Shown here piece after piece: positions 28,829 through 44,158 of a stretch of DNA of 64,000 nt; position 1 is the stretch's first letter; each line of letters opens with the position of its first letter. The notes beneath the pieces were generated by a model, which saw nothing but the letters and a program-made list of their open reading frames with translations, was not told the DNA's origin and did not search any database. The DNA lies in the NCBI GenBank assembly GCA_002309195.1, contig DBWY01000003.1:131449-195448 (forward strand), given 5' to 3'. The translations under genes and the position numbers were made by a program. The stretch comes from Treponema sp. UBA1226. GTDB taxonomy: Bacteria; Spirochaetota; Spirochaetia; Treponematales; Treponemataceae.

Positions 28829-30214
28829 CTAAACAATCCCCGTGACAAGGTAAAGAATAACGCATAAATACGGGACTGCAAACTTTAAAAGCATAATCAT
28901 AAGAAGATCAAAATAACTTTCTTTGTGCGAAAGGCCGCAGATACCGAACATCGTAACGAGAGCGCCACACTGAGGAGCAGGATCGATTCCGGCACCGGCA
29001 AGAGTTATGATTCTGTGAAATGCATCAAGTGAAATACCGCGTGCAACTGCCATGTCCTTCCACATCTGACCGAACTTTGAAAGTGCAATTGTAATTCCGC
29101 TTGATGCAGAACCTGTAATACCTCCTGTGATATTTGTCGTAAGAACTGCAGACCACAGCGGATTACCGTTTGAAGAAAGCTTCATCAGTAAATCCTGAAT
29201 TACGACAAAACCTACAACGCTTGTAACTACACAGCCAAATGCAAATCCGCTTGCAACATTAAATACTGCTGTACCCGAAGAAACTGCTGAACCGTTTATT
29301 ATTTTTATAAACTTAGGACGCTCGCCCTCTGATTTTTTTACAAAAATATTTTTTCTTCCGATTATGAGAGTTGCAATTGATGCAAGAACTGTTGCAATCG
29401 AAACTGCCCACAATGATGGTATCTGCCAGCTGCTCGCAAACTTCCAGTTAAACGGATTGCTTAAAAAAATGTTAAAGAATATTACGATTAAAAGCGGAAT
29501 AAGAGAAATGCGCCAGTCTGGAAGCGAAGATTCATCAAGCTCGAGATTACCTTCATTTGCATGAACGCCGTAGCCTTCGCCTGCAGCATTTAACTTTTTA
29601 ATTCTATATCCGATCCACAAAAGTCCTGTGGCAATAAAACATACAGAAGCAAAAATACCAAGCCCGATACCAGACCAGGTTGATGTTCCGAAGAATTCTG
29701 TCGGGATAATATTCTGTGTCTGCGGAGTTCCAGGAAGCGCAACCATTGCAAAGGTAAAAATGCCGACCCAGAGTGCTGCAGGCAGAAGGCGTTTAGGAGC
29801 GCCGGCCTTGCGAAACAGTACAGCCCCAAAAGGGTACATTACAAACGCAACGACAAAAACGCTTAAACCGCCGTAAGTTAAAATTCCGCAGCCGATTATT
29901 ACTGCAAGAACCGCCCTTTTTGCTCCGAGCACTTTTGATATCTTGCTTGCAATTGATGAAGCAAGGCCGCCTTCTTCCATTAACTTTGCAAACACTGCAC
30001 CAAATAAAAATACCGGGAAAAATTTTCCGATATACTCTGCTGCCTTTACAAAATAAACTTTACCAAGTATATCGATTAAAGGCTGACCGCAGCCGATTGA
30101 AGCAACAACTGCAAGAAGCGGTGCTACTAAAATAATCGATACGCCGCAGTATGCAAGATAAATCAAACCGATTATTGCAACGATGATTGCAATTGTACTT
30201 ATTACAGATGCCAT
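28829..30214 (-). CDS. GntP-family (COG2610-like) permease at end of redox operon
   Basis: A 461-residue inner-membrane transporter with about 12 helices, covering the whole chain from YLAYCGVSIILVAPLLAVVASI to the C-terminus. Family marks are LMEEGGLASSIA, TYGGLSVFVVAFVMYPF, LPGTPQTQNIIP, and the late GAGIDPAPQCGALVTMFGICGLSHKESY (in parts), typical of gluconate/hydroxyacid:H+ symporters. Substrate is unknown. It starts 2 bases after the fumarate-reductase flavoprotein gene, with AAGGAAA before the ATG, so it is almost surely in the same transcript. An organic acid linked to the C4 pathway is a reasonable guess for its cargo, but this is inference only. Confidence 0.8.
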   Translation of the reverse strand: MASVISTIAIIVAIIGLIYLAYCGVSIILVAPLLAVVASIGCGQPLIDILGKVYFVKAAEYIGKFFPVFLFGAVFAKLMEEGGLASSIASKISKVLGAKRAVLAVIIGCGILTYGGLSVFVVAFVMYPFGAVLFRKAGAPKRLLPAALWVGIFTFAMVALPGTPQTQNIIPTEFFGTSTWSGIGLGIFASVCFIATGLLWIGYRIKKLNAAGEGYGVHANEGNLELDESSLPDWRISLIPLLIVIFFNIFLSNPFNWKFASSWQIPSLWAVSIATVLASIATLIIGRKNIFVKKSEGERPKFIKIINGSAVSSGTAVFNVASGFAFGCVVTSVVGFVVIQDLLMKLSSNGNPLWSAVLTTNITGGITGSASSGITIALSKFGQMWKDMAVARGISLDAFHRIITLAGAGIDPAPQCGALVTMFGICGLSHKESYFDLLMIMLLKFAVPYLCVILYLVTGIV

Positions 30215-30216
30215 AA

Positions 30217-31845
30217 TTATTTTCCTTTTACTTCTTCAAATACAGGATTTCCGTGAGTATATTTTGGAAGAATCTTTGGAGAAACTTCGTCAGTATTAAT
30301 TCCTGCTTCTTTTCTCTGCTTTTCAAATTCTTTTACAAAATCAAGTGAAAGCTTATCAGAAAGTTCTGTTTTTGATGCAAGCTCTGCAGCTTCGATTCCT
30401 GCAACACGTCCAAATACAACAACATCAAGAAGTGAGTTTCCCATAAGACGGTTTGTTCCGTGAACACCGCCGGTTACTTCTCCAGCCGCTAAAAGATTTT
30501 TTACAGTTGAATGGCACTTCTTATCGATTTCGATTCCGCCGTTCTGATAATGCAGTGTAGGATAAACAAGAATCGGATCTACAGTAATGTCGATTCCGTA
30601 TTTAATGAACATATTGTACATAGCAGGGATTCTTTTTTTAATCGTTCCTTCTCCGTGAATTTTTTCAATCATCGGTGTATCAAGCCAGACTGCATCCTGT
30701 ACTTCGTTTTTTATTCCGCGGCCTTCTGATACTTCGCGGATAATTCCAGAAGCGTTTACGTCACGTGTTTCAAGCGGGTGAATATAAACATCGCCCTTTG
30801 CGTTTACAAGTTTAGCACCAAGAGAGCGTACTTTTTCTGTAACGAGCTTTCCCAAAATCTGCGAAGGATAAGCAGCTCCTGTAGGATGATACTGGAGAGA
30901 ATCCTGATACATAAGCTTTGCTCCTGCACGATATGCAAGAACAAGACCGTCTGCTGTTGCGCCGTAATGATTTGATGTAGGAAATCCCTGATAGTGCATA
31001 CGGCCGGCGCCGCCTGTTGCGATGATTACTACTTTTGCCTTTGCAATTCTTATTTCGCCTGTTTCGATATTCATAAGAACGGCGCCGGCCGCGTCGCCCT
31101 GCTCGTTCTTGATTATTTCTATCGCTGCAGTAAAATCGACTACATTGATTTTATCAGGACGATTAAAGGTCTCATCACGCAGCGTTCTCATGATTTCGGC
31201 GCCCGAGTAATCTTTACAAGCATGCATACGCTTTCTGCTTGTTCCACCGCCGTGAGTTGTAATCATAGTTCCGTCTTTTTCTTTGTCAAATTCAACTCCA
31301 AGTTCGTTGAGCCACTTTATTGCATCCGGTGCATTGTTAACGAGTGTATAAACAAGTTCAGGCTTACCGTCAAAGTGTCCGCCACCGAATGCATCAAGAT
31401 AATGCTGGGCAGGTGAATCATTTGGCTTGTCTGCTGCCTGAATTCCGCCTTCTGCCATCATCGTGTTTGCATCTCCGACACGGAGTTTTGTAATGAGAAG
31501 AACTTTTGAACCGCGGTTACTTGCTTCGATTGCAGCAGAACAACCTGCTCCACCGCCGCCGATGATAAGAACATCAGTTTCGTAATCTGCTTTTGAAAGA
31601 TTTATTTTATCAAAATCAATTCTGGATTTTGCTTCGAGCATGTCGGTAAGTTCTATCGGAGCTTTCTGTCCTTTGTTTGCACCAATCTTTATTTCTTTAA
31701 ACTGTTCTTTAATTCTATCCGGGTGAAAATTTAAGAGAAGTTCATCTTTCTGTTCTGCCGTCAAACGTGCAGGTTCGCACTTGATATTTTTTTCGCGGTT
31801 TTCTGCAACAATCTTTGCTTCTTCGTCTAAATAATTTCCGTACAT
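30217..31845 (-). CDS. frdA: Fumarate reductase-type flavoprotein subunit, non-covalent FAD predicted
   Basis: A 542-residue flavoprotein of the FrdA/SdhA family. An N-terminal extension of about 88 residues precedes the FAD motif DVLIIGGGGAG (91-101). Fumarate-site residues are conserved: His 320 (QYHPTG), Glu 337 and Arg 340 (TEKVR), Arg 361 (ETRD), His 432 (LHYQNGG) and Arg 466 (GTNRLMGN). The His that binds FAD covalently in respiratory FrdA/SdhA is Asn 127 (ANTMMAEGG), so FAD should be non-covalent, which in known relatives favours fumarate reduction over succinate oxidation. FrdB lies 8 bases upstream; no FrdC/FrdD anchor is present. Reduction of another enoate cannot be excluded, but fumC and mdh nearby favour fumarate. 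AGGAG precedes the ATG. Confidence 0.88.
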   Translation of the reverse strand: MYGNYLDEEAKIVAENREKNIKCEPARLTAEQKDELLLNFHPDRIKEQFKEIKIGANKGQKAPIELTDMLEAKSRIDFDKINLSKADYETDVLIIGGGGAGCSAAIEASNRGSKVLLITKLRVGDANTMMAEGGIQAADKPNDSPAQHYLDAFGGGHFDGKPELVYTLVNNAPDAIKWLNELGVEFDKEKDGTMITTHGGGTSRKRMHACKDYSGAEIMRTLRDETFNRPDKINVVDFTAAIEIIKNEQGDAAGAVLMNIETGEIRIAKAKVVIIATGGAGRMHYQGFPTSNHYGATADGLVLAYRAGAKLMYQDSLQYHPTGAAYPSQILGKLVTEKVRSLGAKLVNAKGDVYIHPLETRDVNASGIIREVSEGRGIKNEVQDAVWLDTPMIEKIHGEGTIKKRIPAMYNMFIKYGIDITVDPILVYPTLHYQNGGIEIDKKCHSTVKNLLAAGEVTGGVHGTNRLMGNSLLDVVVFGRVAGIEAAELASKTELSDKLSLDFVKEFEKQRKEAGINTDEVSPKILPKYTHGNPVFEEVKGK

Positions 31846-31853
31846 ATTTTCTC

Positions 31854-32531
31854 CTACTTCTCTATCTGGCGAGTTTCGTACAATTTTTTTATTTCATCGA
31901 GCGGCTTGTTCATAAGCTGTGCAATTTCTTCTTCGCATTTTCCTTCGCTTATTTCTGCAACACGGTCCATAAGATGCTGTGCTACAGGCTGAATGTATTT
32001 TCCATTAAGACGGCGTGCAAGTTCTGCAACCTGAGGATGAGAAATTCCTGCAGGGCATCTTGAAGAACAGCAGCCGCACATTACACAGTCAAAAGAAAGT
32101 TCTGCACATTTTTCAAAATCACCGCGCTGTGCATATGCAATGTACTGCATTACTTTTAAATCCTGTGTGCACGCTCTTGTACATGCGTTGCATCCGATGC
32201 ATGAATAAATTTCTGGATAAAGCTGCATCATTACAGACTGTTCCGGTTTTATTTTGTCTAAATCATAAATCTGTTTTACAAGAGGAAAAAACGGAAGCGT
32301 TGCTATAAACATTCCGTCTTCTACTTTTTTAGAACAGGCAAGACATGTCATAAGCTGATTTTTACCCTGAATGCGGTAAATCGTTGCACATGCGCCGCAA
32401 AATCCGTTACGGCATCCGCAGCCACGCTTTAACTGGTAGCCTGCGTATTCCATCGCATTCATGATTGTAAGTTCCGAAGGCACTTCATATTTTTTTCCAA
32501 AAAGATAAATTGTAGCCATCTGTTTATCCAT
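31854..32531 (-). CDS. frdB: Short FrdB-like iron-sulfur subunit ([2Fe-2S] + two [4Fe-4S])
   Basis: A 225-residue electron-transfer protein. The N-terminal plant-type [2Fe-2S] domain has Cys 40, 45, 48 and 63 (GCRNGFCGAC...LMTC). The C-terminal domain has two four-Cys sets: C111/114/117/121 (SCIGCNACTRAC) and C149/152/155/159 (CVMCGCCSSRCP). Respiratory FrdB carries [2Fe-2S], [4Fe-4S] and [3Fe-4S] with a quinone site. Here the third site has a full cysteine set, resembling HdrC, and no membrane subunit follows. It would wire FrdA to the HdrBC module. AGGAG lies 7 bases before the ATG; frdA starts 8 bases after the stop. Confidence 0.85.
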   Translation of the reverse strand: MDKQMATIYLFGKKYEVPSELTIMNAMEYAGYQLKRGCGCRNGFCGACATIYRIQGKNQLMTCLACSKKVEDGMFIATLPFFPLVKQIYDLDKIKPEQSVMMQLYPEIYSCIGCNACTRACTQDLKVMQYIAYAQRGDFEKCAELSFDCVMCGCCSSRCPAGISHPQVAELARRLNGKYIQPVAQHLMDRVAEISEGKCEEEIAQLMNKPLDEIKKLYETRQIEK

Positions 32532-32550
32532 TTTTTTCTCCTGTTTTTAA

Positions 32551-33381
32551 TTAGTACTCCGGTGGCAATTCGCCAAGCTGATCAAAGCTGAACACCGGTC
32601 CGTCCTTGCATACGAACTTATCTCCGATATTGCATCTTCCGCATTTACCGATTCCGCATTTCATCCTCATTTCCATCGTTGTAAAAATCTGTTCTTTTTT
32701 AAAACCAAGTTTAATGAGAGCATCAAGTGAAAGATGAATTAAAATCGGAGGCCCGCACATTATGACAGTCATTGACGGGTCTGGATTAAGTTCAGTTATA
32801 TAAGGCGGAACAAAACCAACGTGACCGCTCCATCCTTCTTCTTCTCTGTCAATCGTAAGATCAATCGAACAGTTACTCTGCTTCATCCAGACATTCTGCA
32901 TTTCATCAAGCCTTACTAAATCTGCCACAGAACGGCTGCCGTATATAACCTGAATTTTTCCGTAATCATTTCTTTTATCAAGCATGTAATTTACAACCGA
33001 ATGAACCGGAGCTATACCGATTCCGCCTGCAATTACAAGAATATCTTTTCCCTTTAATTTCGTATCAACAGGAAAACCGTTACCGATTGGTCCGCGCACG
33101 CAGATTTCCTGTCCGACTTCTGCACTATGAAGCCACTCAGTAACACAGCCGCATTTTTTAATAGAAAACTCCATATACTCTTCGAGAGTCGGAGACGATG
33201 TAATCGAAATCATCGATTCACCAACGCCCGGTACGATAAGCATCGCACACTGACCGGGAATATGCTCAAACAATTTTTTTCCATCAAGTCCTGTAACGCG
33301 GAATGTTTTAACGTCCGGAGTTTCCTGTTTTATATCAATTATTTTACCGACATACGGAATAAACGATTCTTTTGCTTCCAT
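32551..33381 (-). CDS. flxA: FAD/NAD(P)H-binding electron input protein (FlxA / sulfhydrogenase gamma-like)
   Basis: A 276-residue ferredoxin-NADP reductase-fold protein. The FAD barrel is about 1-105 (VKTFRV, then SMISITSSP as the flavin-binding strand). The NAD(P) domain starts with IAGGIGIAPVHSVV near 120 and has VIYGSRS and IMCGPP. The C-terminal segment KCGIGKCGRCNIGDKFVCKDG (in parts) binds a [2Fe-2S] cluster as in dihydroorotate dehydrogenase PyrK, AsrB and FlxA. Expected role: oxidise NADH and feed electrons to the neighbouring iron-sulfur proteins and HdrA. GAGGA lies about 5 bases before the ATG. The set FlxA-D plus HdrABC is known from Desulfovibrio and other anaerobes; pairing with frdBA is the unusual point. 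Confidence 0.83.
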   Translation of the reverse strand: MEAKESFIPYVGKIIDIKQETPDVKTFRVTGLDGKKLFEHIPGQCAMLIVPGVGESMISITSSPTLEEYMEFSIKKCGCVTEWLHSAEVGQEICVRGPIGNGFPVDTKLKGKDILVIAGGIGIAPVHSVVNYMLDKRNDYGKIQVIYGSRSVADLVRLDEMQNVWMKQSNCSIDLTIDREEEGWSGHVGFVPPYITELNPDPSMTVIMCGPPILIHLSLDALIKLGFKKEQIFTTMEMRMKCGIGKCGRCNIGDKFVCKDGPVFSFDQLGELPPEY

Positions 33382-33388
33382 ATTTTCC

Positions 33389-34453
33389 TCATTCAGTTCC
33401 CTGAATCATTTTAATAACCTTTACGATATTCATGTTTACAGGACAGCTTTCAAGACAGCGTCCGCATCCAACACATGCATACATTCCGTTATAAACATCC
33501 GGATAATATTTTAACTTGTGCATAAATCTCTGACGGCTTCTTTCTTTCTGCGAAGTTCTCGGGTTTGCAGCAGCCATCTGAGTAAAATCAGAATACATGC
33601 AGCTGTCCCAGCATCTTACCTGCTCAATATTTTTACCGTTATCAAAGTCGCGGACATCAAAGCACATACATGTAGGACAAACATAAGTACAGGTTCCGCA
33701 TCCAAGACAGCTTTCAGAAACTTTATCCCAGATTTTTAAGTTGAATAAATCAAGCATCGGTGTATTTTCTATTTTAGAAAAATCAAGCTTTGCAAACGGA
33801 AGTGCATTTATTTTTTCTTTTATCTCTTCTTTGATTTTTAAAACTTCTTTTTCATCAGAAGTTTCGTCTGTACTTTCGCCAGCGCCGGAAGTTTCGAAAA
33901 CAGAAAGACTTTCAAGAAGCTTCTTTCCTTTTTCTGTCACTTCTTCAAAAAAATATTTACCGCCGCTTTCCCAGCACGCAATATCAGCTCCAGACGGCTT
34001 AGAAGAAAGAGACGCGTCAATTTTATACGAAGAGCAAAAGCATGTTCTCTCAGGATTATTACATGCAAGTACGATTACAGTAGAATGGTCGCGGCGGTTT
34101 TTGTAATACGAGTCAACCGGTTCCTGTTTTAAATAAACGTTGTCGATTACACCAAAAGAAGAAGCGTCACAGGCGCGAACTCCAAAAATTACAAAATCTT
34201 CTACTTCGCTTCTCGGATCTTCTACTTTAAAAGATTTTCCTTCCTTAACATATTTTACAAGACACTCAGTTTTCGGGAAAAAGAAATCTTTTGCAGAACG
34301 CACTGTCTTTAATGCTGAACTTAACTTAACGCCGTTTTCATATTTTACATAATTAGCAGAGTCTTCTTTAACATCAGAAGGAAGATAGAGCTTTTGATTT
34401 TTACTTACAGCGTCAAAAAAATCATAGATTTTTTCTTTTAAAACCGTATACAT
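33389..34453 (-). CDS. flxB: 4Fe-4S dicluster protein (FlxB / AsrA / hydrogenase beta-like)
   Basis: About 354 residues. The first 200 form a domain seen in sulfhydrogenase beta and anaerobic sulfite reductase A subunits (DFVIFGVRACDASSF, ACNNPERTCFC). The C-terminal part has two cluster motifs: SCLGCGTCTYVCPTCMCFD near 248 and ACVGCGRCLESCPVN near 330. Between them are RCWDSCMYSDF and KERSRQRFMHKL, typical of the family. It passes electrons between FlxA and the Hdr part. Adjacent ATGs at 34456 and 34453 overlap the TGA of the previous gene; GGAGGAG spacing favours 34453. The stop is 7 bases from flxA. Confidence 0.78.
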   Translation of the reverse strand: MYTVLKEKIYDFFDAVSKNQKLYLPSDVKEDSANYVKYENGVKLSSALKTVRSAKDFFFPKTECLVKYVKEGKSFKVEDPRSEVEDFVIFGVRACDASSFGVIDNVYLKQEPVDSYYKNRRDHSTVIVLACNNPERTCFCSSYKIDASLSSKPSGADIACWESGGKYFFEEVTEKGKKLLESLSVFETSGAGESTDETSDEKEVLKIKEEIKEKINALPFAKLDFSKIENTPMLDLFNLKIWDKVSESCLGCGTCTYVCPTCMCFDVRDFDNGKNIEQVRCWDSCMYSDFTQMAAANPRTSQKERSRQRFMHKLKYYPDVYNGMYACVGCGRCLESCPVNMNIVKVIKMIQGTE

Positions 34454-35250
34454 CATTCATCTCCTCCATCACTGCTCCTTTCAAAAACAACCGAAGGTTC
34501 TGCATCGTCTTCTTTAAATGTAAGCATAGGCGGTTTAGTTTCCATATCACTTCCTGCCTGATACTCACCGTAAATCTCATTTATATCTTTAATATATTTT
34601 CTGTTAAGAAGATAAAGCGGAATATGTTCAGGGCATACACGACTGCATTCACCACAGTCAGTACAGCGGCCTGCAACATGCCATGCTCTTATTATGTGAT
34701 ACAAAGATTCTTCAAAAGACGTCTGCGCAACTTTCTGTGATGTATAAAGTTTATTGTTATCAAAAACACATTTTTCGCATGTACATGCAGGACAAATGTC
34801 GCGGCATGCATTACATCTTATACAGCGGCTGAATTCTTTTTTCCAGAACTCATATCTTTGGTCTGCAGACATCTTTTCGAGTTTTTCAACTTCTTCAAAG
34901 CGTTTCTGTTTTTCTTCCTTATCTTTTTCTGATTCAGGAAGTTCGATTATTACAACTTCGTCTGCATTAATTCTGTGTTCTTTTAAAAGCTGATTGTATG
35001 ACAAAACAAATTTAGGACGTAAGAAAATTCCGACTTTATGAGTTTTGTGTCTCATTAAAAATTTTACGAGGTTCCCGCAGTAGCGCTCATCATACACAAA
35101 ATCTTTTTTTAATTCTTCTACACTTTCAAAAACTGCAGGTGCTATATCTTCTTCAAATAAACCTTTTTTCCAGCCGATTATTTTTTCTACTGTTCCGTCT
35201 GCGAGGAGTTTTTCTGCTTTTTCGATAAGCTCTTTTTCTATCTGCTGCAT
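34453..35250 (-). CDS. flxC: 4Fe-4S dicluster protein (FlxC-like)
   Basis: A 265-residue iron-sulfur protein with an N-terminal helical/alpha-beta part (about 1-130, RPKFVLSYNQLLKEHRI) and two four-Cys sets: FSRCIRCNACRDICPACTCEKC near 140 and RCTDCGECSRVCPEHIP near 195. This matches the second iron-sulfur subunit of FlxABCD-type clusters. FlxB and FlxC names are not uniform between genomes, so the letter is tentative. It overlaps the mvhD/flxD gene by 13 bases and the next gene by the stop codon, which implies translational coupling and fixed ratio in a complex. GGAGG precedes the ATG. Confidence 0.75.
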   Translation of the reverse strand: MQQIEKELIEKAEKLLADGTVEKIIGWKKGLFEEDIAPAVFESVEELKKDFVYDERYCGNLVKFLMRHKTHKVGIFLRPKFVLSYNQLLKEHRINADEVVIIELPESEKDKEEKQKRFEEVEKLEKMSADQRYEFWKKEFSRCIRCNACRDICPACTCEKCVFDNNKLYTSQKVAQTSFEESLYHIIRAWHVAGRCTDCGECSRVCPEHIPLYLLNRKYIKDINEIYGEYQAGSDMETKPPMLTFKEDDAEPSVVFERSSDGGDE

Positions 35251-35675
35251 CTTACATCCTCCAGTTTTTTACATCTTCCGAGCTTTGTAATCTTTTCAAC
35301 AAAATCATTCATGATTCCCGCAAAGCGAACACCCTCTGCGGCACTGCACCACTCAACTCTCGTGCGGCTTTTTTCGATTCCGAGAAAATCAAGCATAGAA
35401 AAAAGTAAAGTCATTCTTCTTCGTGCAAAATAATTTCCAGTTGAATAATGACAGTCACCCGGATGACAGCCGCAGAGAATTACACCGTCTGCTCCACGCT
35501 GAAAAGCTCTTAAAATAAAAAGCGGATTCAATCTGCACGAACACGGGATGCGTATAATTTTTACGTTTGCAGGATATTCAAGGCGGTTATTACCGGCAAG
35601 ATCTGCTCCCGCATATGAACACCAGTTACAGCAGAATGCAACGATTTTTGGCTTAAAATAATTTGTCTCTTCCAT
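35238..35675 (-). CDS. flxD: MvhD/FlxD-type [2Fe-2S] electron-transfer subunit
   Basis: A 145-residue protein of the MvhD (FlpD) family, the adaptor that carries electrons to HdrA in HdrABC complexes. Conserved cysteines appear in FCCNWCSYAGADLAG, the PCSCRLNP motif, the LCGCHPGDCHYSTGN motif and a late EWCSAAEG, which together bind one [2Fe-2S] cluster. Two ATGs are possible; AAAGG favours 35675. It follows hdrA after an intercistronic gap with two strong hairpins (35689-35741) that may set different mRNA levels for the hdrBCA and flx-frd halves. Gene order hdrA-mvhD strongly supports the assignment. Confidence 0.88.
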   Translation of the reverse strand: MEETNYFKPKIVAFCCNWCSYAGADLAGNNRLEYPANVKIIRIPCSCRLNPLFILRAFQRGADGVILCGCHPGDCHYSTGNYFARRRMTLLFSMLDFLGIEKSRTRVEWCSAAEGVRFAGIMNDFVEKITKLGRCKKLEDVRCSR

Positions 35676-35688
35676 AATCATCCTTTCG

Positions 35689-35741
35689 CGAGTTTTCGAA
35701 GAAAACTCGACGTTATGTAAATCCGGCAGGATTTACATAAC
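35689..35741 (-). repeat. Two tandem intercistronic hairpins between hdrA and flxD
   Basis: Hairpin A: CGAGTTTTC (35689-35697) and GAAAACTCG (35701-35709), 9-base perfect stem, 3-base loop. Hairpin B: GTTATGTAAATCC (35712-35724) and GGATTTACATAAC (35729-35741), 13-base perfect stem, 4-base loop. In the mRNA hairpin B contains the last codons and stop of hdrA, and hairpin A sits directly before the flxD ribosome-binding site. No T run follows, so RNA stability, processing or translational control is more likely than termination. Confidence 0.8.
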
Positions 35742-37745: not shown

Positions 37746-37748
37746 ATA

Positions 37749-38144
37749 TTATCTCTTATATTTTCTGAAAGCAGAAACAAGTGCCTGCTGTGGAATATCA
37801 TCATCCAGAAACTCCGGAACTTTTTCTGCGCCAAGATGATCAGGATTTCTTGAAGTAATCACAAGCTGACGCACGGCTTCGATTATTTTTGCAGGTTCAA
37901 CCTGACGCGGGCATCTTTCAAGACATGCAAAACAACTGAGACATGAAAAAACAGATTTTGATTTTAAAAGTTTTTCTATTTCGCCGTTTTCTACCATCTG
38001 CACAAACTGATGCGGATGATATTCCATGTTATCGTAGTCAGGACAACTTGCGCTGCATTTACCGCATACCATGCACTTTTTTGTGTCAGTTCCGCTTATA
38101 TCCTTAATCATAAGTTTTAAATTTTCGATTTCTATATCTGTCAT
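37749..38144 (-). CDS. hdrC: Heterodisulfide reductase subunit C
   Basis: A 131-residue iron-sulfur protein with two complete ferredoxin-like sets: C24/27/30/34 (KCMVCGKCSASCP) and C68/71/74/78 (SCLSCFACLERCP). It passes electrons from HdrA to HdrB. The ATG at 38144 has GGAGGG about 6 bases upstream and lies one base after the hdrB stop codon; an earlier in-frame start inside hdrB is unlikely. hdrA follows after 3 bases. Length and Cys spacing are standard. Confidence 0.92.
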   Translation of the reverse strand: MTDIEIENLKLMIKDISGTDTKKCMVCGKCSASCPDYDNMEYHPHQFVQMVENGEIEKLLKSKSVFSCLSCFACLERCPRQVEPAKIIEAVRQLVITSRNPDHLGAEKVPEFLDDDIPQQALVSAFRKYKR

Positions 38145-38145
38145 T

Positions 38146-38964
38146 CTATGCCCTCCGTATTCCGAGAGCCTGTGCAAGCAGACGGGTAAAATAAACTATA
38201 TCCGGCGATGAAGCGCGGCGGTTTTTTGCAAGATTGTAAAGACACAATGGACAGCTTGTTACCATAATCTCTGCGCCAAAATCTTTTGCATTGCAAAGAA
38301 TTTTTTCTGCGCGGCCTTCAGAAATTTTTTTATCTTCAAAAACAGTGTAAGCACCGCAGCATTCATTGCGTTCAGAATAAATTACCGGAACACCACCGAT
38401 TGCTTTTATAAAATCTTCTATAATCTCTGGATTTTCAGGATCATCAAACTGCATTACTTTCGAAGGGCGAAGTAAAAGACATCCGTAATACGCACCGATT
38501 TTTTTATTGTAAAAAGGAGAATTCTTTATATCGCCGCCGTTTGCTTTTGCAACAGCGCTCTTAACTTTTTCCCAGCCGATTTCATCTCGAAGCACTTCAA
38601 GATAATGAAGGACTTCTGTATTTCCTTCATAAGAAATGTCATCATCTTTTAAATAATTGTTGGCTTTTTCTTTTATCGAAGAATCGGTTTTAATATCGTT
38701 ATTGACCTGTTTTAAAACATTATAACATGCTGAACACAACGTAACGATTTTTTTATTCTGTGATTCAGCACAGGCAAGTGCACGTACAGAAGAAAGTTTT
38801 GGAGCAATTTCCTGTTTAGAAAGCGGATAAGTTCCGCCACAGCACTGCCACTCAGGGATTTCTGAAAGTTCAAAGCCTAGAATTTCTGCACTTTCCCTTG
38901 CGTAAAAATCAAGATCTTCTGCCTTATTTTTAAGAGTACATCCCGGATAATATGCGTATGTCAT
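38146..38964 (-). CDS. hdrB: Heterodisulfide reductase subunit B, two CCG domains
   Basis: A 272-residue protein with two intact CCG domains. The first has Cys 9, Cys-Cys-Gly at 41-43 and CSAC at 77-80. The second has Cys 162, Cys-Cys-Gly at 202-204 and CPLC at 238-241. In methanogens these bind two non-cubane [4Fe-4S] clusters that reduce the CoM-S-S-CoB disulfide. A spirochaete has no known CoM/CoB, so the partner must differ; the linked frdBA suggests electrons go on to fumarate, or to a thiol protein. The ATG at 38964 has GGAG upstream and comes right after a strong hairpin (38982-39024). First gene of the ten-gene run. Confidence 0.92.
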   Translation of the reverse strand: MTYAYYPGCTLKNKAEDLDFYARESAEILGFELSEIPEWQCCGGTYPLSKQEIAPKLSSVRALACAESQNKKIVTLCSACYNVLKQVNNDIKTDSSIKEKANNYLKDDDISYEGNTEVLHYLEVLRDEIGWEKVKSAVAKANGGDIKNSPFYNKKIGAYYGCLLLRPSKVMQFDDPENPEIIEDFIKAIGGVPVIYSERNECCGAYTVFEDKKISEGRAEKILCNAKDFGAEIMVTSCPLCLYNLAKNRRASSPDIVYFTRLLAQALGIRRA

Positions 38965-38981
38965 AATTGTCTCCGCAAACG

Positions 38982-39031
38982 AAAAATGCCACATACCGTG
39001 CTTTTACACGACGATAGTGGCATTCATTTTA
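38982..39031 (-). promoter_or_regulatory. Terminator-like hairpin and possible -10 in front of hdrB
   Basis: On the minus strand, AATGCCAC (39024-39017) pairs with GTGGCATT (38992-38985) around an inner CGTG/CACG stem, followed by five T residues (38986-38982) and, 18 bases later, the hdrB ATG. A candidate -10 TAAAAT lies at 39031-39026. The hairpin may end transcripts of the upstream lipoprotein gene, or act as an attenuator for the hdr-flx-frd operon. Confidence 0.55.
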
Positions 39032-39061
39032 ACGTATTTCGCTCATTTAGGGAATAATACC

Positions 39062-41764
39062 CTATTTTTTCCTTACGACCAGAAGGTGATGTACTCTGAT
39101 TCCGTTTGAATCTACAGTATCAAGGCTTATCGTATTGCCGTGAACGTCCCTGAAGCTGTAAACAGTCTTGTTTTTGGTCATATTTATGCCGTTTACCTGG
39201 ACTGTTTTGTACTCAGAATCGCTCCAGCTTGCGACGCAGACCTCGATTTCGTCAGATGGAATGTCATAATACCATGTTTTTACGCCGCTTCCCCTTTCTG
39301 TAGTCACCGATGAACATGTGTAATAGCCTTTTTTGCCTACGAAAATGAGGGATGTACTTCCATTATATGCGCTTGCAGGAACTTTTGTGCCATTTATCGT
39401 AGAAGCAGTCTCGTATGCAGAAGCAGGCTTGTTGCCGCCCGAACCTGAGCTCGGTTTTGTCTCTGCAGGTTTCGTTTCTGCAGGCTTTGTCTCAGCGGGT
39501 TTCGTTTCTGCAGGCTTTGTCTCTACCGGCTTTGCTTCTGTATTCGAAGGCTTCTGTGTATTTCCCGTATCAACAGGCTTTGCAACTTCTTCATGCTGTA
39601 CTTCGTGCGGTTTTTCTATTGCAGGCGGAATATTTGCAATACCAGAGTTTTCTACCTTTGTCTCCTGAGTTTCTTTTACTTCTTTCTGTGTCGGAAGTCT
39701 TATCGAAACTTTATGCGATTGAGAAAGCTGTGCATAAGAGTTGTCTGCAAGATTTCTGAGGGAGAATGAGATTGGAACAATATCGCTTACTTCTACAGCC
39801 ATACTTGTTCCGATTTTAAGCCAGTTATAAATTCCGTCGAGGTCGTTGATAGAATAAATCTTTTCAGAAACCGTGATTGCGCTTACAGTTGTTCCGTTAT
39901 GAGACCACTTGTAACTTACTTCAGGGTTTACACGCATTCCTGTTGCACCGCTGTTCTTTCTGTCACGAGGACGACATGCAGTGATGTCTCTTATGATTTC
40001 TTCTGACGGTAAGTCTGAACAGATTACAAAATATGCTTTTCTTCCGTAGTCAACAGAAGAAACATAATAAGGAGTTACAGATTTTAAAGTAGCTTCTGTA
40101 ACGACATTTTTATCTGCAACAAAGAAATCAACAGGGAGCTTAGGAGGATACATCGAAGTTGAATAGAATTTCTGAGTTACCTTTACGAGTGTATAAGATT
40201 TTTCCGGATTCCAGTTATAAGAACCGATTGCATAAGAAACCTTATCACGACCTGCACCGATTCCTGTTGTAAGCGCAAGATCTTCCGGAGAGTAAACTGT
40301 ATGGAACTCATAAGTACAGTCAACTTCCATCTGACTTCCATATCTTGTCGCATGCTTTCTGATTTCGTTTACAGAATAAGCTCCGTCATGAGCATATGTA
40401 ACAACCCCGTCACCAAGATTTCTTCCTGAAGAACTTACAGAATAGTTGATCACATTTCTTGTACCGTATGCAAACTGATTGAACTTCTGATTTGCAATCG
40501 ATTCACCTGTTATGATTGAACCAGGATAAATTGTTTTTTCCATAGAAGGAATATAAACATCAATGTTCGAAGTCCTGCAAGAAACCGAAAGAGAACCCTT
40601 ACCGTTATCACCCGGTGTTAAATTTCTTGACATCGTAAACGGAACATAATTTCCGCTTGAAAGACTTATTCCATTTTCTGAATAAGTTTTACCGAGTGAT
40701 TTAAGTTTTTTATAGAAATTATAAAGTGATGCTTCATACGGAGAGTTCTTGTAATTTCCAAGTTCGACAAAAAGTTTTCCTGCAGTTTCATAAGATTTTG
40801 CAGTATGATCATCGAGATAAAGATATGCAAGATAATATTTTACTTTTAAGATGTAAGTTTTAGCATCTTTGTAATCACCTGCATTTTCAAGATAAGTTAA
40901 GATTTCTTTATAATCATCTTTTGTCTGTGCCCCATCAAGCAAAGCCATTGCAATTTCATAACTTAAAATCTGAACTTTTCTTGAAGCATCACGATAATTA
41001 TTTACCCATGTAAATGAATTTTTATACCATTCAATTGCAGTTTTATGTCCCTGTATTGAATTAAGCATTTCATAGTCATAACCGTTAAGGTAACAGAGTT
41101 CTGCACAGCGTTCATCACAATTTCCGATAGAACCTGCATAAGAGTTTGCATTCTTATAAAGATTGATTATCGAAGCACGCTCTTCTACATTCTGTCCCGG
41201 ATACAAAGCTTCTGCAAGGTTGTAGTAGAATTCTCCAAGTTCGTATTTTGCAGTTGCATACATCGAAGCAAAATCTTCTGTATACTTTACTACTTCATAT
41301 TCACCGGTTTTTGAATTTCCAATTCTTGCAGGAAGAACGCTTACAGCATTTTTAATTCTTACAAGACCGCTAAGATTATTAATAAGTTTAGAGCTTCGTG
41401 AGATTACAGAAGCAACATCCGGATGACTTGTTATTGTTTTTCCATTAGCAAGCTGATTGCGGCATTTTCTGATTGCTTCTGTTTCCGAAGCTGAATATTT
41501 AGAAGCAAATTCTTTTCTTATCTGCTTTACAGTTTCTTTTGTGTAAAGTTCTTCAACTGCAGAAGGATAAACGCTCACAAAAAGTTCAATTGCTTCTTCG
41601 TCATCACGCTTAGAAGAAATTCTTTTTGAAAGGATTTCGATTGCAGTTACTTTATCACCTGATGCAATAAGCCTTTTTGCACGTTCATTTGATACACAGC
41701 CTGTAAGACTTAATATCATGCTGAATAAAATCAAAATAAAACTCAACTTGATTTTTCTGTTCAT
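39062..41764 (-). CDS. Large lipoprotein with helical repeats and PAETK tract
   Basis: About 900 residues. Signal peptide with lipobox SLTGC (Cys near 23) marks an envelope lipoprotein. The first 330 residues are helical and resemble TPR/Sel1-like repeats (ASGDKVTAIEILSKRI, YDYEMLNSIQGHKTAIEWYKNSF and KDAKTYILKVKYYLAYLYL, each in pieces). The middle is beta-rich and unrecognised. Residues 741-770 are an ETKPA tandem tract, then a Gly/Ser linker and a C-terminal beta domain. I do not recognise the family. GTGAGG before the ATG at 41764 serves as ribosome-binding site, so the GTG at 41776 is not the start. It sits between fumC and the hdr operon on the same strand. Confidence 0.65.
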   Translation of the reverse strand: MNRKIKLSFILILFSMILSLTGCVSNERAKRLIASGDKVTAIEILSKRISSKRDDEEAIELFVSVYPSAVEELYTKETVKQIRKEFASKYSASETEAIRKCRNQLANGKTITSHPDVASVISRSSKLINNLSGLVRIKNAVSVLPARIGNSKTGEYEVVKYTEDFASMYATAKYELGEFYYNLAEALYPGQNVEERASIINLYKNANSYAGSIGNCDERCAELCYLNGYDYEMLNSIQGHKTAIEWYKNSFTWVNNYRDASRKVQILSYEIAMALLDGAQTKDDYKEILTYLENAGDYKDAKTYILKVKYYLAYLYLDDHTAKSYETAGKLFVELGNYKNSPYEASLYNFYKKLKSLGKTYSENGISLSSGNYVPFTMSRNLTPGDNGKGSLSVSCRTSNIDVYIPSMEKTIYPGSIITGESIANQKFNQFAYGTRNVINYSVSSSGRNLGDGVVTYAHDGAYSVNEIRKHATRYGSQMEVDCTYEFHTVYSPEDLALTTGIGAGRDKVSYAIGSYNWNPEKSYTLVKVTQKFYSTSMYPPKLPVDFFVADKNVVTEATLKSVTPYYVSSVDYGRKAYFVICSDLPSEEIIRDITACRPRDRKNSGATGMRVNPEVSYKWSHNGTTVSAITVSEKIYSINDLDGIYNWLKIGTSMAVEVSDIVPISFSLRNLADNSYAQLSQSHKVSIRLPTQKEVKETQETKVENSGIANIPPAIEKPHEVQHEEVAKPVDTGNTQKPSNTEAKPVETKPAETKPAETKPAETKPAETKPSSGSGGNKPASAYETASTINGTKVPASAYNGSTSLIFVGKKGYYTCSSVTTERGSGVKTWYYDIPSDEIEVCVASWSDSEYKTVQVNGINMTKNKTVYSFRDVHGNTISLDTVDSNGIRVHHLLVVRKK
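39453..39542 (-). repeat. Six 15-base units coding PAETK-type repeats
   Basis: Six consecutive 15-base units inside the lipoprotein gene, each encoding a Pro/Ala/Glu/Thr/Lys pentapeptide. Units 2 and 4 are identical and neighbouring pairs form a 30-base higher-order repeat. Such a tract can vary in copy number by slippage and acts as a flexible spacer. Confidence 0.85.
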
Positions 41765-41795
41765 CTTATACCTCACGTTTTAATATTTTCTTAAT

Positions 41796-43187
41796 CTATC
41801 TTCCGTATGGAAACGCCATTTTTTCTGGTTTAAATACTTCATCAAATTTTTCTGCAGTAAGAAAGCCAAGACTTACACATGCTTCTTTTAAAGAAATATT
41901 TTCTTCAAAAGCCTTGTGGGCTGTCTTTGCCGCATTTTCATAACCGATATATGGATTTAATGCAGTAACAAGCATAAGCGAGTTGTAAAGATTGTGATGC
42001 ATTTTTTCTTTATCGGCTTTTATTCCGACTGCACAGTTTTTATTAAAGCTTACAATCGCTTCTGCAAGTAATCTCGCACTCTGAATAAAATTGTACGCGA
42101 TTACCGGCATAAAAACGTTAAGCTCAAAATTACCCTGGCTCGCAGCAAAGGCGATTGCAGCGTCGTTTCCCATAACCTGGACTGCAACCATAGTGACGGC
42201 CTCACACTGTGTCGGATTTACTTTTCCAGGCATTATAGAAGAACCCGGTTCGTTTGCAGGAATTTTTATTTCTCCAAGGCCGTCACGCGGACCGGAAGCA
42301 AGCCATCTTACATCGTTTGCAATTTTCATCATGTCCGCTGCAAGCGCCTTAATCGCGCCGTGTGCAAAAACAAGTTCATCCTTGCTGGTAAGCGCATGAA
42401 ATTTATTTGGTGCAGTAATGAATTTTTTGCCGGTGAGGCGCGATAAGCAGGATGCAACTTTTTTGTCAAAGCCTTTAGGTGCGTTTAAACCCGTTCCAAC
42501 GGCTGTCCCGCCAAGTGCAAGCTGCTTAAGATAAGGCAATGAACTTTCGAGCATTTTTCTGTCACGCTCAAGTGATGTTCGCCAGCCGGATATTTCCTGA
42601 GAAAACGAAATCGGAACTGCATCCTGCAGATGCGTGCGGCCGGATTTTACGACCTTTATGTTTTCTTTTTCAAGTCTTTTAAATGTTTCTGTAAGAACAT
42701 CAATTGCAGGAAACAATTTATCTTCTATAGAGTAAACTGCAGAAATGTGGAGTGCAGTAGGAAAAGTATCGTTTGATGACTGCGACATATTGATGTCGTC
42801 ATTAGGATGACAGAGTTTTTTTCCTGCAATTTCATTTGCACGGTTTGCGATTACCTCGTTTGCGTTCATATTGCTCTGAGTTCCGCTTCCTGTCTGCCAT
42901 ACTACAAGCGGAAAATGCTCATCAAGAGCCCCGCTTATTACTTCGTCGCATGCTTTAGAAATGACTCTAAGTTTTTCTTTAGTCATTTTTTTAGGATTAA
43001 GAGAGCTGTTTGCCATTGCTGCAGCTTTTTTTAAGTAACCGAAAGCCTTCGTAATTTCGCGCGGCATCGTTTCAAGTCCGACTCCGATTTCGAAGTTTTC
43101 GTGACTGCGCTGTGTCTGGGCTCCCCAGTATCGGTCTTCAGGAACCTTTACTTCGCCCATTGAGTCATGTTCAATCTTATATTTCAT
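41796..43187 (-). CDS. fumC: Class II fumarate hydratase
   Basis: Oxygen-stable, iron-free fumarase interconverting malate and fumarate; 463 residues, standard for FumC. Visible signatures: GSGTQSNMNANEVIANRA (residues 100-118), PNDDINMSQSSNDTFPTALHI (in parts, B site), KSGRTHLQDAVPISF, the catalytic loop GSSIMPGKVNPTQCEA near 318 and the C-terminal LNPYIGYENAAKTAHKA. Residues separate it from aspartase and argininosuccinate lyase. It is 23 bases after mdh, with AAGGAAA before the ATG, so the two form one unit. In a succinate-producing anaerobe it would run malate to fumarate and supply FrdA encoded downstream. Confidence 0.95.
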   Translation of the reverse strand: MKYKIEHDSMGEVKVPEDRYWGAQTQRSHENFEIGVGLETMPREITKAFGYLKKAAAMANSSLNPKKMTKEKLRVISKACDEVISGALDEHFPLVVWQTGSGTQSNMNANEVIANRANEIAGKKLCHPNDDINMSQSSNDTFPTALHISAVYSIEDKLFPAIDVLTETFKRLEKENIKVVKSGRTHLQDAVPISFSQEISGWRTSLERDRKMLESSLPYLKQLALGGTAVGTGLNAPKGFDKKVASCLSRLTGKKFITAPNKFHALTSKDELVFAHGAIKALAADMMKIANDVRWLASGPRDGLGEIKIPANEPGSSIMPGKVNPTQCEAVTMVAVQVMGNDAAIAFAASQGNFELNVFMPVIAYNFIQSARLLAEAIVSFNKNCAVGIKADKEKMHHNLYNSLMLVTALNPYIGYENAAKTAHKAFEENISLKEACVSLGFLTAEKFDEVFKPEKMAFPYGR

Positions 43188-43210
43188 ACTTTTTCCTTAT
43201 GTAACTTCTG

Positions 43211-44158
43211 TTAGAATTTAAGCTGCTTTATTATATCTTTCAAACAATCGGCACTGTGTCTTAGTTTCAAAATTTCGTCATCTTTTAAAGGGGCTATAAG
43301 GTGAGATTTTATGCCCGAAGAACCTACTACGCAGAGAATACTTAAGGCAACGTCATCTATGCCGTATTCTCCGTTAAGAAGGGTCGAAACCGTAAGGGTT
43401 GAGTCCATTACATTGTCCACGCAGTCTACAAGATGGCATGTAGTTGCGGCAATCGCATAGTAAGTTGCTCCCTTTTCCTGAATTATTTTACTGCCCGATT
43501 TTTTGATGTAGTTTTCGACATCATCAAAATCAAGCGGCGGAAAAACGTCGTCCTTGTTCTGGATGCTCGGCTCGTATTCTAAAAGCGGGATTGTCGCGAT
43601 ATTTGCAAGTGACCACGGAACAAAAGAAGAATCGCCGTGCTCTCCAAATACATAACCGTGAACATTCGTCTGGGTAAGATAATAATATTCAGCAATTCTT
43701 GCCCTTAAACGTGCCGAGTCGAGCAGGGTTCCTGTTCCCATAATCTGGTTAGGCTTTAAGCCTGAGGTTTTATAGAACTGATATGTTAAAATATCGCACG
43801 GATTTGCAACGATTATGTATTTTGCGTCCGGTGCATATTTTGTTATCTGCGGAATTATAGTCTTAGTAATGTCCACGTTTGTCTGGGCAAGATCAAGCCT
43901 TGTCTGGCCTGGTTTTCTTGCAACTCCCGACGTGAGGATTACGATTTCCGAGTTCTTTGCATCGGTATAAGTTCCGGAATATATATTTACTGCCGGGCAG
44001 AACGGAAGCCCCTGTCTAATATCCAGCGCCTCACCGTGGGCTTTTTCGTTGTTTATGTCTATCATTACGATTTCTGTTGCAAGACCGCGTATCGTTAAAG
44101 TATACGCAATAGTAGAACCTACTGCTCCTGCTCCGATTATTGTTACTTTCTGTGCCAT
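43211..44158 (-). CDS. mdh: Malate dehydrogenase of the LDH-like type
   Basis: A 315-residue NAD-dependent 2-hydroxyacid dehydrogenase. GAGAVGST near 10 and Asp 34 (VMIDIN) point to NAD rather than NADP. Catalytic residues: Arg 87 (GQTRLDL), Asp 147 and Arg 150 (LLDSARLR), His 174 (FGEHGDSS). The substrate-choosing position (Gln 102 in lactate dehydrogenase numbering) is Arg 81 in VARKPG, as in malate dehydrogenases, although the rest of the loop looks like LDH. So oxaloacetate/malate is predicted, and the neighbour fumC fits. General annotation would call it L-lactate dehydrogenase. GGAG lies 6-9 bases before the ATG; the motif AAGCTGAATAAAAT lies 20 bases before the ATG. Confidence 0.82.
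   Translation of the reverse strand: MAQKVTIIGAGAVGSTIAYTLTIRGLATEIVMIDINNEKAHGEALDIRQGLPFCPAVNIYSGTYTDAKNSEIVILTSGVARKPGQTRLDLAQTNVDITKTIIPQITKYAPDAKYIIVANPCDILTYQFYKTSGLKPNQIMGTGTLLDSARLRARIAEYYYLTQTNVHGYVFGEHGDSSFVPWSLANIATIPLLEYEPSIQNKDDVFPPLDFDDVENYIKKSGSKIIQEKGATYYAIAATTCHLVDCVDNVMDSTLTVSTLLNGEYGIDDVALSILCVVGSSGIKSHLIAPLKDDEILKLRHSADCLKDIIKQLKF

What the first reader, a model, noticed from the sequence alone, without database searches (positions are those of the whole stretch)
28829..44158. Candidate NADH-driven, electron-bifurcating soluble fumarate reductase: mdh-fumC plus hdrBCA-flxDCBA-frdBA
Seen: ten adjacent minus-strand genes with gaps or overlaps of a few bases (one gap of about 57 bases) encode a full HdrABC (all CCG and ferredoxin cysteines intact), an MvhD/FlxD adaptor, two dicluster proteins, an FAD/NAD-binding FlxA, a short FrdB and an FrdA with a complete fumarate site. 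Malate dehydrogenase and fumarase lie just upstream. No FrdC/FrdD anchor is present. Known: HdrA complexes bifurcate electrons in methanogens; FlxABCD-HdrABC oxidises NADH in other anaerobes; fumarate/succinate (about +30 mV) lies far above NADH (-320 mV). Inference: the spare energy could reduce ferredoxin while fumarate takes the high-potential electrons, giving succinate fermentation without quinones. I do not know of a described complex of exactly this composition.
Basis: partly seen in the sequence, partly recalled or inferred. Interest (0 to 1): 0.9.

Follow-up and report, generated by a model that had tools for sequence, protein, structure and literature searches.

The report
Quinone-free electron-bifurcating fumarate reductase operon
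A gut-type Treponema carries a gene set that probably makes succinate by passing electrons from NADH to fumarate through a soluble complex that also charges ferredoxin; the same arrangement had already been proposed for a clostridium, so this is a well-supported new case of a known but, as far as my searches reach, untested idea.

Summary
The genes are there. The nine-gene order is a fixed module: 56 of 58 relatives with enough flank keep it; both exceptions carry other genes between flxA and frdB. A fumarase gene belongs to the cluster in 50 of 53; where fumC is missing, an unrelated class I fumarase replaces it in 5 of 8. FrdA keeps the fumarate site but has Asn for the FAD-attaching His in 79 of 79, which favours fumarate reduction. 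UbiA, needed for quinones, is absent from 32 of 36 carrier genomes searched. Best reading: NADH-driven, electron-bifurcating, soluble fumarate reductase that charges ferredoxin (then Rnf). The idea is not new: PMC7282089 describes the same 'succinate operon' in Pseudoclostridium thermosuccinogenes and cites a 2019 preprint. Added here: its spread and apparent transfer between Clostridia and Treponema, the invariant Asn, and a multi-HdrA variant. My paper searches found no enzymology.

The parts
43211..44158 (-). mdh, LDH-family NAD dehydrogenase, probably malate dehydrogenase (Arg81)
   Evidence: NCBIfam, Pfam; Arg at the specificity position in 40 of 40; present upstream in 40 of 53 relatives with enough flank
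41796..43187 (-). fumC, class II fumarase
   Evidence: NCBIfam fumC_II 702.8 bits, above its cut-off of 664.75; fumC upstream in 45 of 53 relatives
39062..41776 (-). 904-aa lipoprotein-like protein between fumC and hdrB; probably not part of the function
   Evidence: ORF; no Pfam match; not found in the 80 related loci at E<=1e-10
38146..38994 (-). hdrB, two CCG stretches (likely start at Met11, by eye)
   Evidence: Pfam; 10 CCG cysteines invariant in 57 of 57; closest solved: HdrB 8rvv_B
37749..38177 (-). hdrC, dicluster [4Fe-4S] protein (TTG start listed; ATG at codon 12 more likely)
   Evidence: 8 Cys invariant in 52 of 52
35733..37745 (-). hdrA, bifurcating flavin subunit, full length
   Evidence: end-to-end match to 8rvu_a, 8rvv_A, 5odc_A, 9sfi_A, 7bkb_A; Glu365 and Lys421 (= 5odc Glu356, Lys409) in 58 of 58
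35238..35681 (-). flxD (MvhD/FlpD adaptor)
   Evidence: Pfam FlpD 182 bits; in 33 of 34 FrdB-bearing Clostridia-class genomes, on the same contig in 32
34453..35250 (-). flxC, dicluster protein; shorter than the 62 relatives compared
   Evidence: 265 aa against 293-334 aa
33389..34456 (-). flxB, AsrA/HydB-like Fe-S protein
   Evidence: Fer4_22; sulfhyd_HydB 157 bits and sulfite_red_A 134 bits, both below cut-off
32551..33381 (-). flxA, FAD/NAD(P)H dehydrogenase subunit
   Evidence: NAD_binding_1 plus DHODB_Fe-S_bind; NADH versus NADPH preference not tested
31854..32531 (-). frdB, [2Fe-2S] plus two CxxCxxCxxxC [4Fe-4S] motifs (read by eye)
   Evidence: best NCBIfam match is the N-terminal part of TfrB, far below cut-off; 7209 proteins at E<=1e-20
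30217..31845 (-). frdA, fumarate reductase flavoprotein with Asn127 for the FAD-His and an ~85-residue N-terminal extension
   Evidence: best NCBIfam match TfrA, below cut-off; catalytic residues invariant; modelled fold matches FrdA/SdhA/Fcc3/NadB
28829..30214 (-). GntP-like permease, candidate dicarboxylate exporter
   Evidence: PF02447 just under its cut-off; relatives carry PF02447/PF03600; 2 bp after frdA; stands where many relatives have an Asp-Al_Ex transporter

Best explanation
The nine genes hdrBCA-flxDCBA-frdBA encode one soluble cytoplasmic complex. FlxA takes a hydride from NADH; electrons pass through the Fe-S clusters of FlxB/FlxC and FlxD to the FAD of HdrA. HdrA bifurcates: one electron goes downhill to fumarate at FrdA by way of HdrC/HdrB and FrdB, the other uphill to ferredoxin. 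Net: 2 NADH + fumarate + oxidised ferredoxin -> 2 NAD+ + succinate + two-electron-reduced ferredoxin. With mdh and fumarase this is the reductive branch oxaloacetate -> malate -> fumarate -> succinate without quinones or a membrane anchor; Rnf can turn the reduced ferredoxin into an ion gradient, and a neighbouring permease probably exports succinate. SHOWN: genes, order, intact sites, near-fixed linkage, partner genes, absence of UbiA in most carriers searched. INFERRED: one physical complex, electron path, bifurcation, NADH as donor, direction, exporter role.
For: (a) Linkage: nine-gene order in 56 of 58 FrdA loci with >=7.2 kb upstream. In genome draws FrdB (E<=1e-20) occurs in 12 of 198 Spirochaetota and 34 of 245 Clostridia-class genomes; all 9 close spirochaete carriers have HdrA on the same contig and strand; 33 of 34 clostridial carriers have FlxD, 32 on the same contig. 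(b) FrdA: His320, Glu337, Arg340, Arg361, His432 in 79 of 79, Arg466 in 77 (2 gaps); the FAD-His position is Asn127 in 79 of 79; homologues with noncovalent FAD only reduce fumarate (PMC9557727, passages). (c) HdrB CCG Cys 57 of 57; HdrA Glu365/Lys421 58 of 58; HdrA matches archaeal bifurcating HdrA end to end. (d) Partners: fumC upstream in 45 of 53, class I fumarase downstream in 5 of the other 8, mdh in 40 of 53, an Asp-Al_Ex-type transporter within 6 kb downstream in 32 of 56; that family includes a succinate exporter (PMC9527358, abstract in listing). (e) UbiA absent in 32 of 36 carriers, control 14 of 14 positive; RnfC_N in 27 of 36. (f) The TfrB profile joins a FrdB-like and an HdrB-like half, both matched by this cluster's separate FrdB and HdrB. 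(g) In P. thermosuccinogenes the equivalent operon rises about 4-fold under CO2 limitation (passages).
Against: No biochemistry here or found in my paper searches. The permease and the 904-aa gene are absent from all 80 relatives at E<=1e-10, so the operon ends differ. frdBA is parted from flxA by 8.7 kb (L003) and 7.2 kb (L006) of other genes, and in L008 a flavodoxin-like and other ORFs stand before frdB, with no flxA before the contig ends, so joint transcription is not universal. Among distant relatives (47% identity) G011 has flxC(part)-flxB-flxA-frdB-frdA without adjacent Hdr genes. Distance correlations of FrdA/FrdB with Hdr/Flx proteins (0.69-0.87) overlap those of the neighbour mdh with the same proteins (0.67-0.79), so they do not show physical contact. 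9 of 36 carriers lack an RnfC_N match. The FrdB model is poor (pTM 0.46) and gave no useful fold match. No whole genome of this organism is held, so its own quinone and Rnf genes are untested. P. thermosuccinogenes expression change was not significant for all subunits.
Confidence: 0.75

Rival explanations
1. Two enzymes linked by a diffusible thiol/disulfide: Flx-Hdr reduces a disulfide at HdrB, and FrdAB takes electrons from the thiols, as TfrAB does in methanogens.
For: HdrB keeps both CCG sites, which split a disulfide in methanogens (recalled); FrdA and FrdB match TfrA/TfrB best; PMC7282089 speaks of Flx-Hdr passing electrons to ferredoxin 'and thiols'.
Against: FrdB (225 aa) lacks the HdrB-like half of TfrB (488 positions) that would oxidise thiols; nine genes in one order in 56 of 58.
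Confidence: 0.1
2. A plain NADH:fumarate reductase: FlxABC hands electrons straight to FrdBA and no ferredoxin is reduced; Hdr has another job.
For: G011 has flxC(part)-flxB-flxA-frdB-frdA with no Hdr gene adjacent; flxCBA is closest to frdBA in gene order.
Against: In G011 FlxC is cut and joined to a LolA-like domain, so this looks like a rearranged remnant; its relative G047 keeps Hdr genes in the cluster; 56 of 58 testable relatives keep HdrABC, with the HdrA flavin-contact residues in 58 of 58 HdrA sequences.
Confidence: 0.07
3. The complex runs backwards: succinate is oxidised to fumarate with electron confurcation to NAD+.
For: Hdr and Flx enzymes are in principle reversible (recalled).
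Against: Asn instead of the FAD-attaching His in 79 of 79 FrdA; noncovalent homologues cannot oxidise succinate (PMC9557727); mdh, fumarase and exporter context suits fermentation.
Confidence: 0.03
4. FrdA reduces another unsaturated carboxylate, not fumarate.
For: FrdA is far below every curated cut-off listed (TfrA 354.6 bits against 718), and the superfamily includes urocanate reductase.
Against: Complete fumarate-site residues; a fumarase gene in 50 of 53 clusters, swapped for an unrelated one in 5 of 8 that lack fumC.
Confidence: 0.04

Closest known systems
'Succinate operon' of Pseudoclostridium thermosuccinogenes (PMC7282089, passages; preprint of Koendjbiharie and van Kranenburg 2019, seen only as a citation)
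   Same: Fumarase, Flx-Hdr block (tags RS03360-30, which I read as seven genes), two-gene fumarate reductase and a putative succinate transporter in a row; same proposed coupling to ferredoxin reduction
   Different: Thermophilic clostridium; its sequence was not compared here; mdh is not listed in that operon
FlxABCD-HdrABC of Desulfovibrio vulgaris (Ramos 2015, title seen in reference lists)
   Same: Same seven subunits
   Different: No FrdAB attached (recalled); linked to ethanol metabolism (title)
Thiol:fumarate reductase TfrAB of methanogens
   Same: FrdA/FrdB with an HdrB-like electron partner; best NCBIfam match for FrdA and FrdB
   Different: TfrB joins FrdB-like and HdrB-like halves; uses CoM-SH and CoB-SH (recalled); no HdrA bifurcation (recalled); scores here far below the family cut-offs
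HdrABC-MvhAGD of methanogens (5odc and relatives)
   Same: HdrABC core with FlxD/MvhD-type adaptor and conserved HdrA flavin residues
   Different: H2 donor and heterodisulfide acceptor (recalled) instead of NADH and fumarate
8-Methylmenaquinol:fumarate reductase (MFR)
   Same: HdrB's best NCBIfam match is its subunit SdhE (143 bits, cut-off 500)
   Different: Quinol-linked; no HdrA or Flx (recalled)

Membership tests
Proposed electron-bifurcating fumarate reductase (P. thermosuccinogenes type) | fumarase + Flx-Hdr + FrdBA + transporter in one run | tested here: met
   but the 904-aa gene lies between fumC and hdrB, and the transporter is GntP-like
Proposed electron-bifurcating fumarate reductase (P. 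thermosuccinogenes type) | sequence kinship with the P. thermosuccinogenes operon | not tested
   that genome was not fetched; the one genome-contig scan kept only the best 80 loci
Proposed electron-bifurcating fumarate reductase (P. thermosuccinogenes type) | NADH-driven fumarate reduction coupled to ferredoxin reduction | not testable with these tools
   needs enzymology; none seen in the listings and passages
Bifurcating HdrA | full-length HdrA with cluster cysteines and flavin-contact Glu/Lys | tested here: met
   the role of Glu356 and Lys409 in 5odc is recalled
FlxABCD-HdrABC | all seven subunits adjacent | tested here: met
Soluble fumarate reductase flavoprotein | complete dicarboxylate site | tested here: met
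Soluble fumarate reductase flavoprotein | noncovalent FAD (no FAD-His) | tested here: met
   Asn in 79 of 79; the FAD itself was not observed
Membrane quinol:fumarate reductase (FrdABCD) | membrane anchor subunits and quinone | tested here: not met
   no anchor gene seen among the cluster ORFs; UbiA absent in 32 of 36 carriers; the window's own genome could not be searched
TfrAB | TfrB with HdrB-like half; scores above curated cut-offs | tested here: not met
   TfrA 354.6 of 718 bits; TfrB 38.2 of 385 bits

The most novel reading that the evidence does not exclude
This is a widespread, horizontally traded energy-conserving enzyme that lets quinone-free gut bacteria (Treponema, Ruminococcus flavefaciens and other Clostridia) make succinate while charging ferredoxin, making fumarate the high-potential acceptor of an Hdr complex; the HdrB clusters deliver electrons directly to FrdB rather than to a disulfide, and one spirochaete lineage builds a larger version with three HdrA-type proteins in the same cluster.
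Probability: 0.5. Interest if true: 0.7.

Novelty: new member of a known kind. Interest (0 to 1): 0.45.

Why it matters
Gut and rumen bacteria form succinate, a precursor of host propionate (general knowledge), but 32 of 36 carriers searched here lack UbiA and so probably cannot use the textbook quinol-linked fumarate reductase. A bifurcating soluble enzyme would explain how they do it and would add energy (ferredoxin -> Rnf). It would also add a dicarboxylate to the acceptors served by Hdr complexes. The gene set is compact, nearly fixed and present in named cultured species such as Ruminococcus flavefaciens FD-1 (L079), so the question can be tested directly.

Tried and rejected
Chance adjacency: rejected by 56 of 58. 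Separate inheritance of Frd and Flx-Hdr: checked with genome draws; apparent exceptions G236 and G275 are contigs that end inside the cluster, and G211 has the genes on two contigs. In one search only 6 candidates per genome were scored, so a missing second HdrA there means little. Mirror-tree test: uninformative, since mdh correlates about as well. FrdB structure: too weak to use; one match at E<=1e-3 (8oh5_C, TM 0.25). FrdA structure: confirms the superfamily only; residues 127-143, 196-213 and 280-293 have pLDDT under 50. Promoter/terminator scan: 28 promoter-like sites against 35.4 expected; 26 terminator-like against 12.9 expected, both strands together; the minus-strand ones lie inside genes; of little use. 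Search for a stand-alone FlxABC-FrdAB lineage: both covered the same 8 genomes and gave only the three distant carriers already known. Paper searches gave one prior description (PMC7282089); papers looked into by passages: PMC7282089, PMC5861303, PMC13014828, PMC9044749, PMC12918512, PMC9557727; other listed papers were not opened, and the library lacks most subscription journals and preprints. On re-checking I found that L008, which I had counted among contig-edge loci that contradict nothing, also has other genes before frdB; now reported.
Full report
WHAT IS THERE. One search lists, on the minus strand in transcription order: mdh (44158-43211), fumC (43187-41796), a 904-aa lipoprotein-like gene (41776-39062), hdrB, hdrC, hdrA, flxD, flxC, flxB, flxA, frdB, frdA (38994-30217) and a permease (30214-28829). 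The core has overlaps or gaps up to 19 bp, with one of 51 bp between hdrA and flxD (57 from the second Met).

DOMAINS. Pfam and NCBIfam agree with the names. FrdA's best NCBIfam model is TfrA (354.6 bits, cut-off 718), then sdhA_frdA (297.5). FrdB's best is the N-terminal part of TfrB (38.2 bits, cut-off 385). HdrB's best is SdhE of 8-methylmenaquinol:fumarate reductase (143.4 bits), then HdrB (134.6). None of these passes its cut-off. The TfrB model (488 positions) is matched by FrdB in positions 19-148 and by HdrB in 261-480: the methanogen protein joins what is split here. That is the main hint that HdrB hands electrons to FrdB.

ACTIVE SITES. Aligned with E. coli FrdA, His232, Glu245, Arg248, Arg287, His355 and Arg390 (E. 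coli numbering and roles recalled) correspond to His320, Glu337, Arg340, Arg361, His432 and Arg466; the first five are identical in 79 of 79 sequences and Arg466 in 77 (two gaps). The residue that binds FAD covalently in E. coli (recalled) is Asn127 in all 79. PMC9557727 (passages) states that homologues with noncovalent FAD only reduce fumarate and cannot oxidise succinate. The ten CCG cysteines of HdrB are kept in 57 of 57, the eight of HdrC in 52 of 52; cluster cysteines of FlxB and FlxC are invariant (66 and 63 sequences), those of HdrA and FlxD nearly so (single exceptions). HdrA aligns end to end with solved archaeal HdrA; Glu356 and Lys409 of 5odc_A, recalled as flavin contacts, correspond to Glu365 and Lys421, identical in 58 of 58. 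FrdB has a [2Fe-2S] stretch and two full CxxCxxCxxxC motifs (by eye). FrdA begins with about 85 residues ahead of the FAD domain, containing invariant positions, and ends about 76 residues after Arg466; the modelled fold (mean pLDDT 78.7) matches FrdA, Fcc3 and L-aspartate oxidase structures.

A NEAR-FIXED MODULE. One scan of genome contigs with FrdA kept the best 80 loci of 563 confirmed relatives. Of 58 with at least 7.2 kb upstream, 56 have hdrB-C-A-flxD-C-B-A-frdB-A in this order and strand; the other 22 are cut by contig ends. The two exceptions, L003 and L006, have 8.7 and 7.2 kb between flxA and frdB, filled with other genes (transporters, a large sensor-like protein and others); in the genome of L003 HdrA still lies about 12 kb from frdB on the same strand. 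Among the 22 cut loci, L008 has a flavodoxin-like and another ORF before frdB and no flxA before the contig ends, so frdBA is parted from flxA in at least three loci. Where both flxA and frdB were found (72 loci), 70 lie within 760 bp. In genome draws, FrdB at E<=1e-20 occurs in 12 of 198 Spirochaetota (9 at 73-86% identity, 3 at 47%) and in 34 of 245 genomes of the class of R. flavefaciens. All 9 close spirochaete carriers have HdrA linked (two of the nine, G001 and G005, also came from my loci). Of the 34, 33 have FlxD, 32 on the same contig; FlxD without FrdB occurs in 6 genomes, five with only 51-59% identity and one (G236) on a contig that ends inside flxA.

PARTNER GENES. Of 53 loci with at least 9.5 kb upstream (L003 and L006 left out), 45 have fumC; of the 8 without, 5 have a class I fumarase (PF05681 in the two checked) downstream; 3 (L070, L076, L077) had neither by these searches. 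mdh is present in 40 of 53. Of 56 loci with at least 6 kb downstream, 32 have a transporter related to the Asp-Al_Ex family (PF06826 in the four checked) on the same strand within 6 kb, 22 within 350 bp. PMC9527358 (abstract in listing) says this family includes a succinate exporter. The window has instead a GntP-like permease 2 bp after frdA; many of its homologues carry PF02447 or PF03600. Replacement of fumarase and exporter by unrelated genes argues that the module works on fumarate and succinate.

NO QUINONES, RNF PRESENT. I gave 36 of 51 carrier genomes then known to two searches. UbiA (PF01040) is found in 4 of 36; the control search was positive in 14 of 14. None of the 12 spirochaete carriers given has it. 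RnfC_N (PF13375) is found in 27 of 36: 11 of 12 spirochaetes and 16 of 24 Bacillota. Completeness of these genomes is not told. They are relatives; no genome of the window's organism is held.

SPREAD BETWEEN PHYLA. In a FrdA tree of 40 rows (rooted at the midpoint) the window's spirochaete clade of 10 rows (100/99) sits among Bacillota, and two further loci titled Treponema (L048, L064) sit elsewhere among Bacillota. FrdA is 66-70% identical between window and the Bacillota loci, while the housekeeping MnmG is 73-79% identical in the close spirochaetes but 50-58% over its best-matching stretch in the Bacillota genomes searched. This suggests at least two transfers; deep forks are weakly supported, and a mis-binned MAG could mimic the second.

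DISTANT VARIANTS. Three Spirochaetota of another order carry FrdB at 47% identity. G047 has one cluster hdrC-hdrB-hdrA-(1599-aa HdrA-like)-FlxD-FlxC-like-HdrC-like-(1003-aa HdrA-like)-flxD-flxC-flxB-flxA-frdB-frdA. G011 keeps only the end of FlxC, joined in frame to a LolA-like domain, then flxB-flxA-frdB-frdA: real loss or assembly join, not decided. In G024 the short stretch read holds frdA and frdB only.

MECHANISM. With fumarate +33 mV and NADH -320 mV (PMC5861303 passages), and ferredoxin taken as -420 to -500 mV (recalled), my arithmetic gives about -49 to -33 kJ/mol for 2 NADH + fumarate + oxidised ferredoxin -> 2 NAD+ + succinate + two-electron-reduced ferredoxin, so bifurcation is feasible. 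Most likely path: FlxA-FlxB/FlxC-FlxD-HdrA, then HdrC/HdrB-FrdB-FrdA for the high-potential electron and ferredoxin for the other. The path beyond HdrA is inference.

PRIOR ART. PMC7282089 (passages and outline seen) describes in P. thermosuccinogenes a 'succinate operon' of fumarate hydratase, a Flx-Hdr complex (RS03360-30), fumarate reductase (RS03325-20) and a possible succinate transporter, assumes coupling to ferredoxin reduction, reports about 4-fold higher expression under CO2 limitation (not significant for all subunits), and cites a 2019 preprint on the idea, which I could not read. I found no purification or activity data for such a complex in the listings, nor a report of the module in Treponema. 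The case is therefore a new member of a proposed kind, with comparative evidence and a spread that the passages I read do not give.

VERDICT. Observation confirmed; interpretation largely right but unproven and not new in concept. Interest 0.45.

Noticed in passing
L173 366-15592 and L164 4083-20000 (G047 contig C38): A cluster with FrdBA, FlxABCD and three HdrA-type proteins (655, 1003 and 1599 aa; the last two composite) plus a second FlxD, a FlxC-like and two HdrC-like proteins: a possible larger Hdr-fumarate reductase assembly.
   Followed up: partly
L163 8818-9987 (G011): LolA-like domain joined in frame to the C-terminal part of FlxC, next to ABC/FtsX genes; Hdr genes are missing here. 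Rearrangement or assembly join.
   Followed up: partly
window 34453-35250: FlxC is 265 aa, shorter than the 62 relatives compared (293-334 aa); a middle segment with a CxxC pair, present in the 5 relatives whose rows were printed, is missing.
   Followed up: partly
window 39062-41776: 904-aa lipoprotein-like protein with a 30-bp tandem repeat (39456-39540), between fumC and hdrB; not found in 80 relatives.
   Followed up: partly
L008 1-1578: A flavodoxin-like ORF (886-1293) and part of a P-type-ATPase-like ORF stand directly before frdB, where flxA is expected; the contig ends there.
   Followed up: partly
L006 / G006:C69 and C32: Two frdB copies (82% and 80% to the window) in one genome, on different contigs.
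   Followed up: no
L052, L053, L059, L060, L063: fumC is missing upstream and a class I fumarase lies downstream of frdA in this Lachnospiraceae-type group.
   Followed up: yes
L054: A second FrdA-like match (33%) on the opposite strand near the cluster.
   Followed up: no
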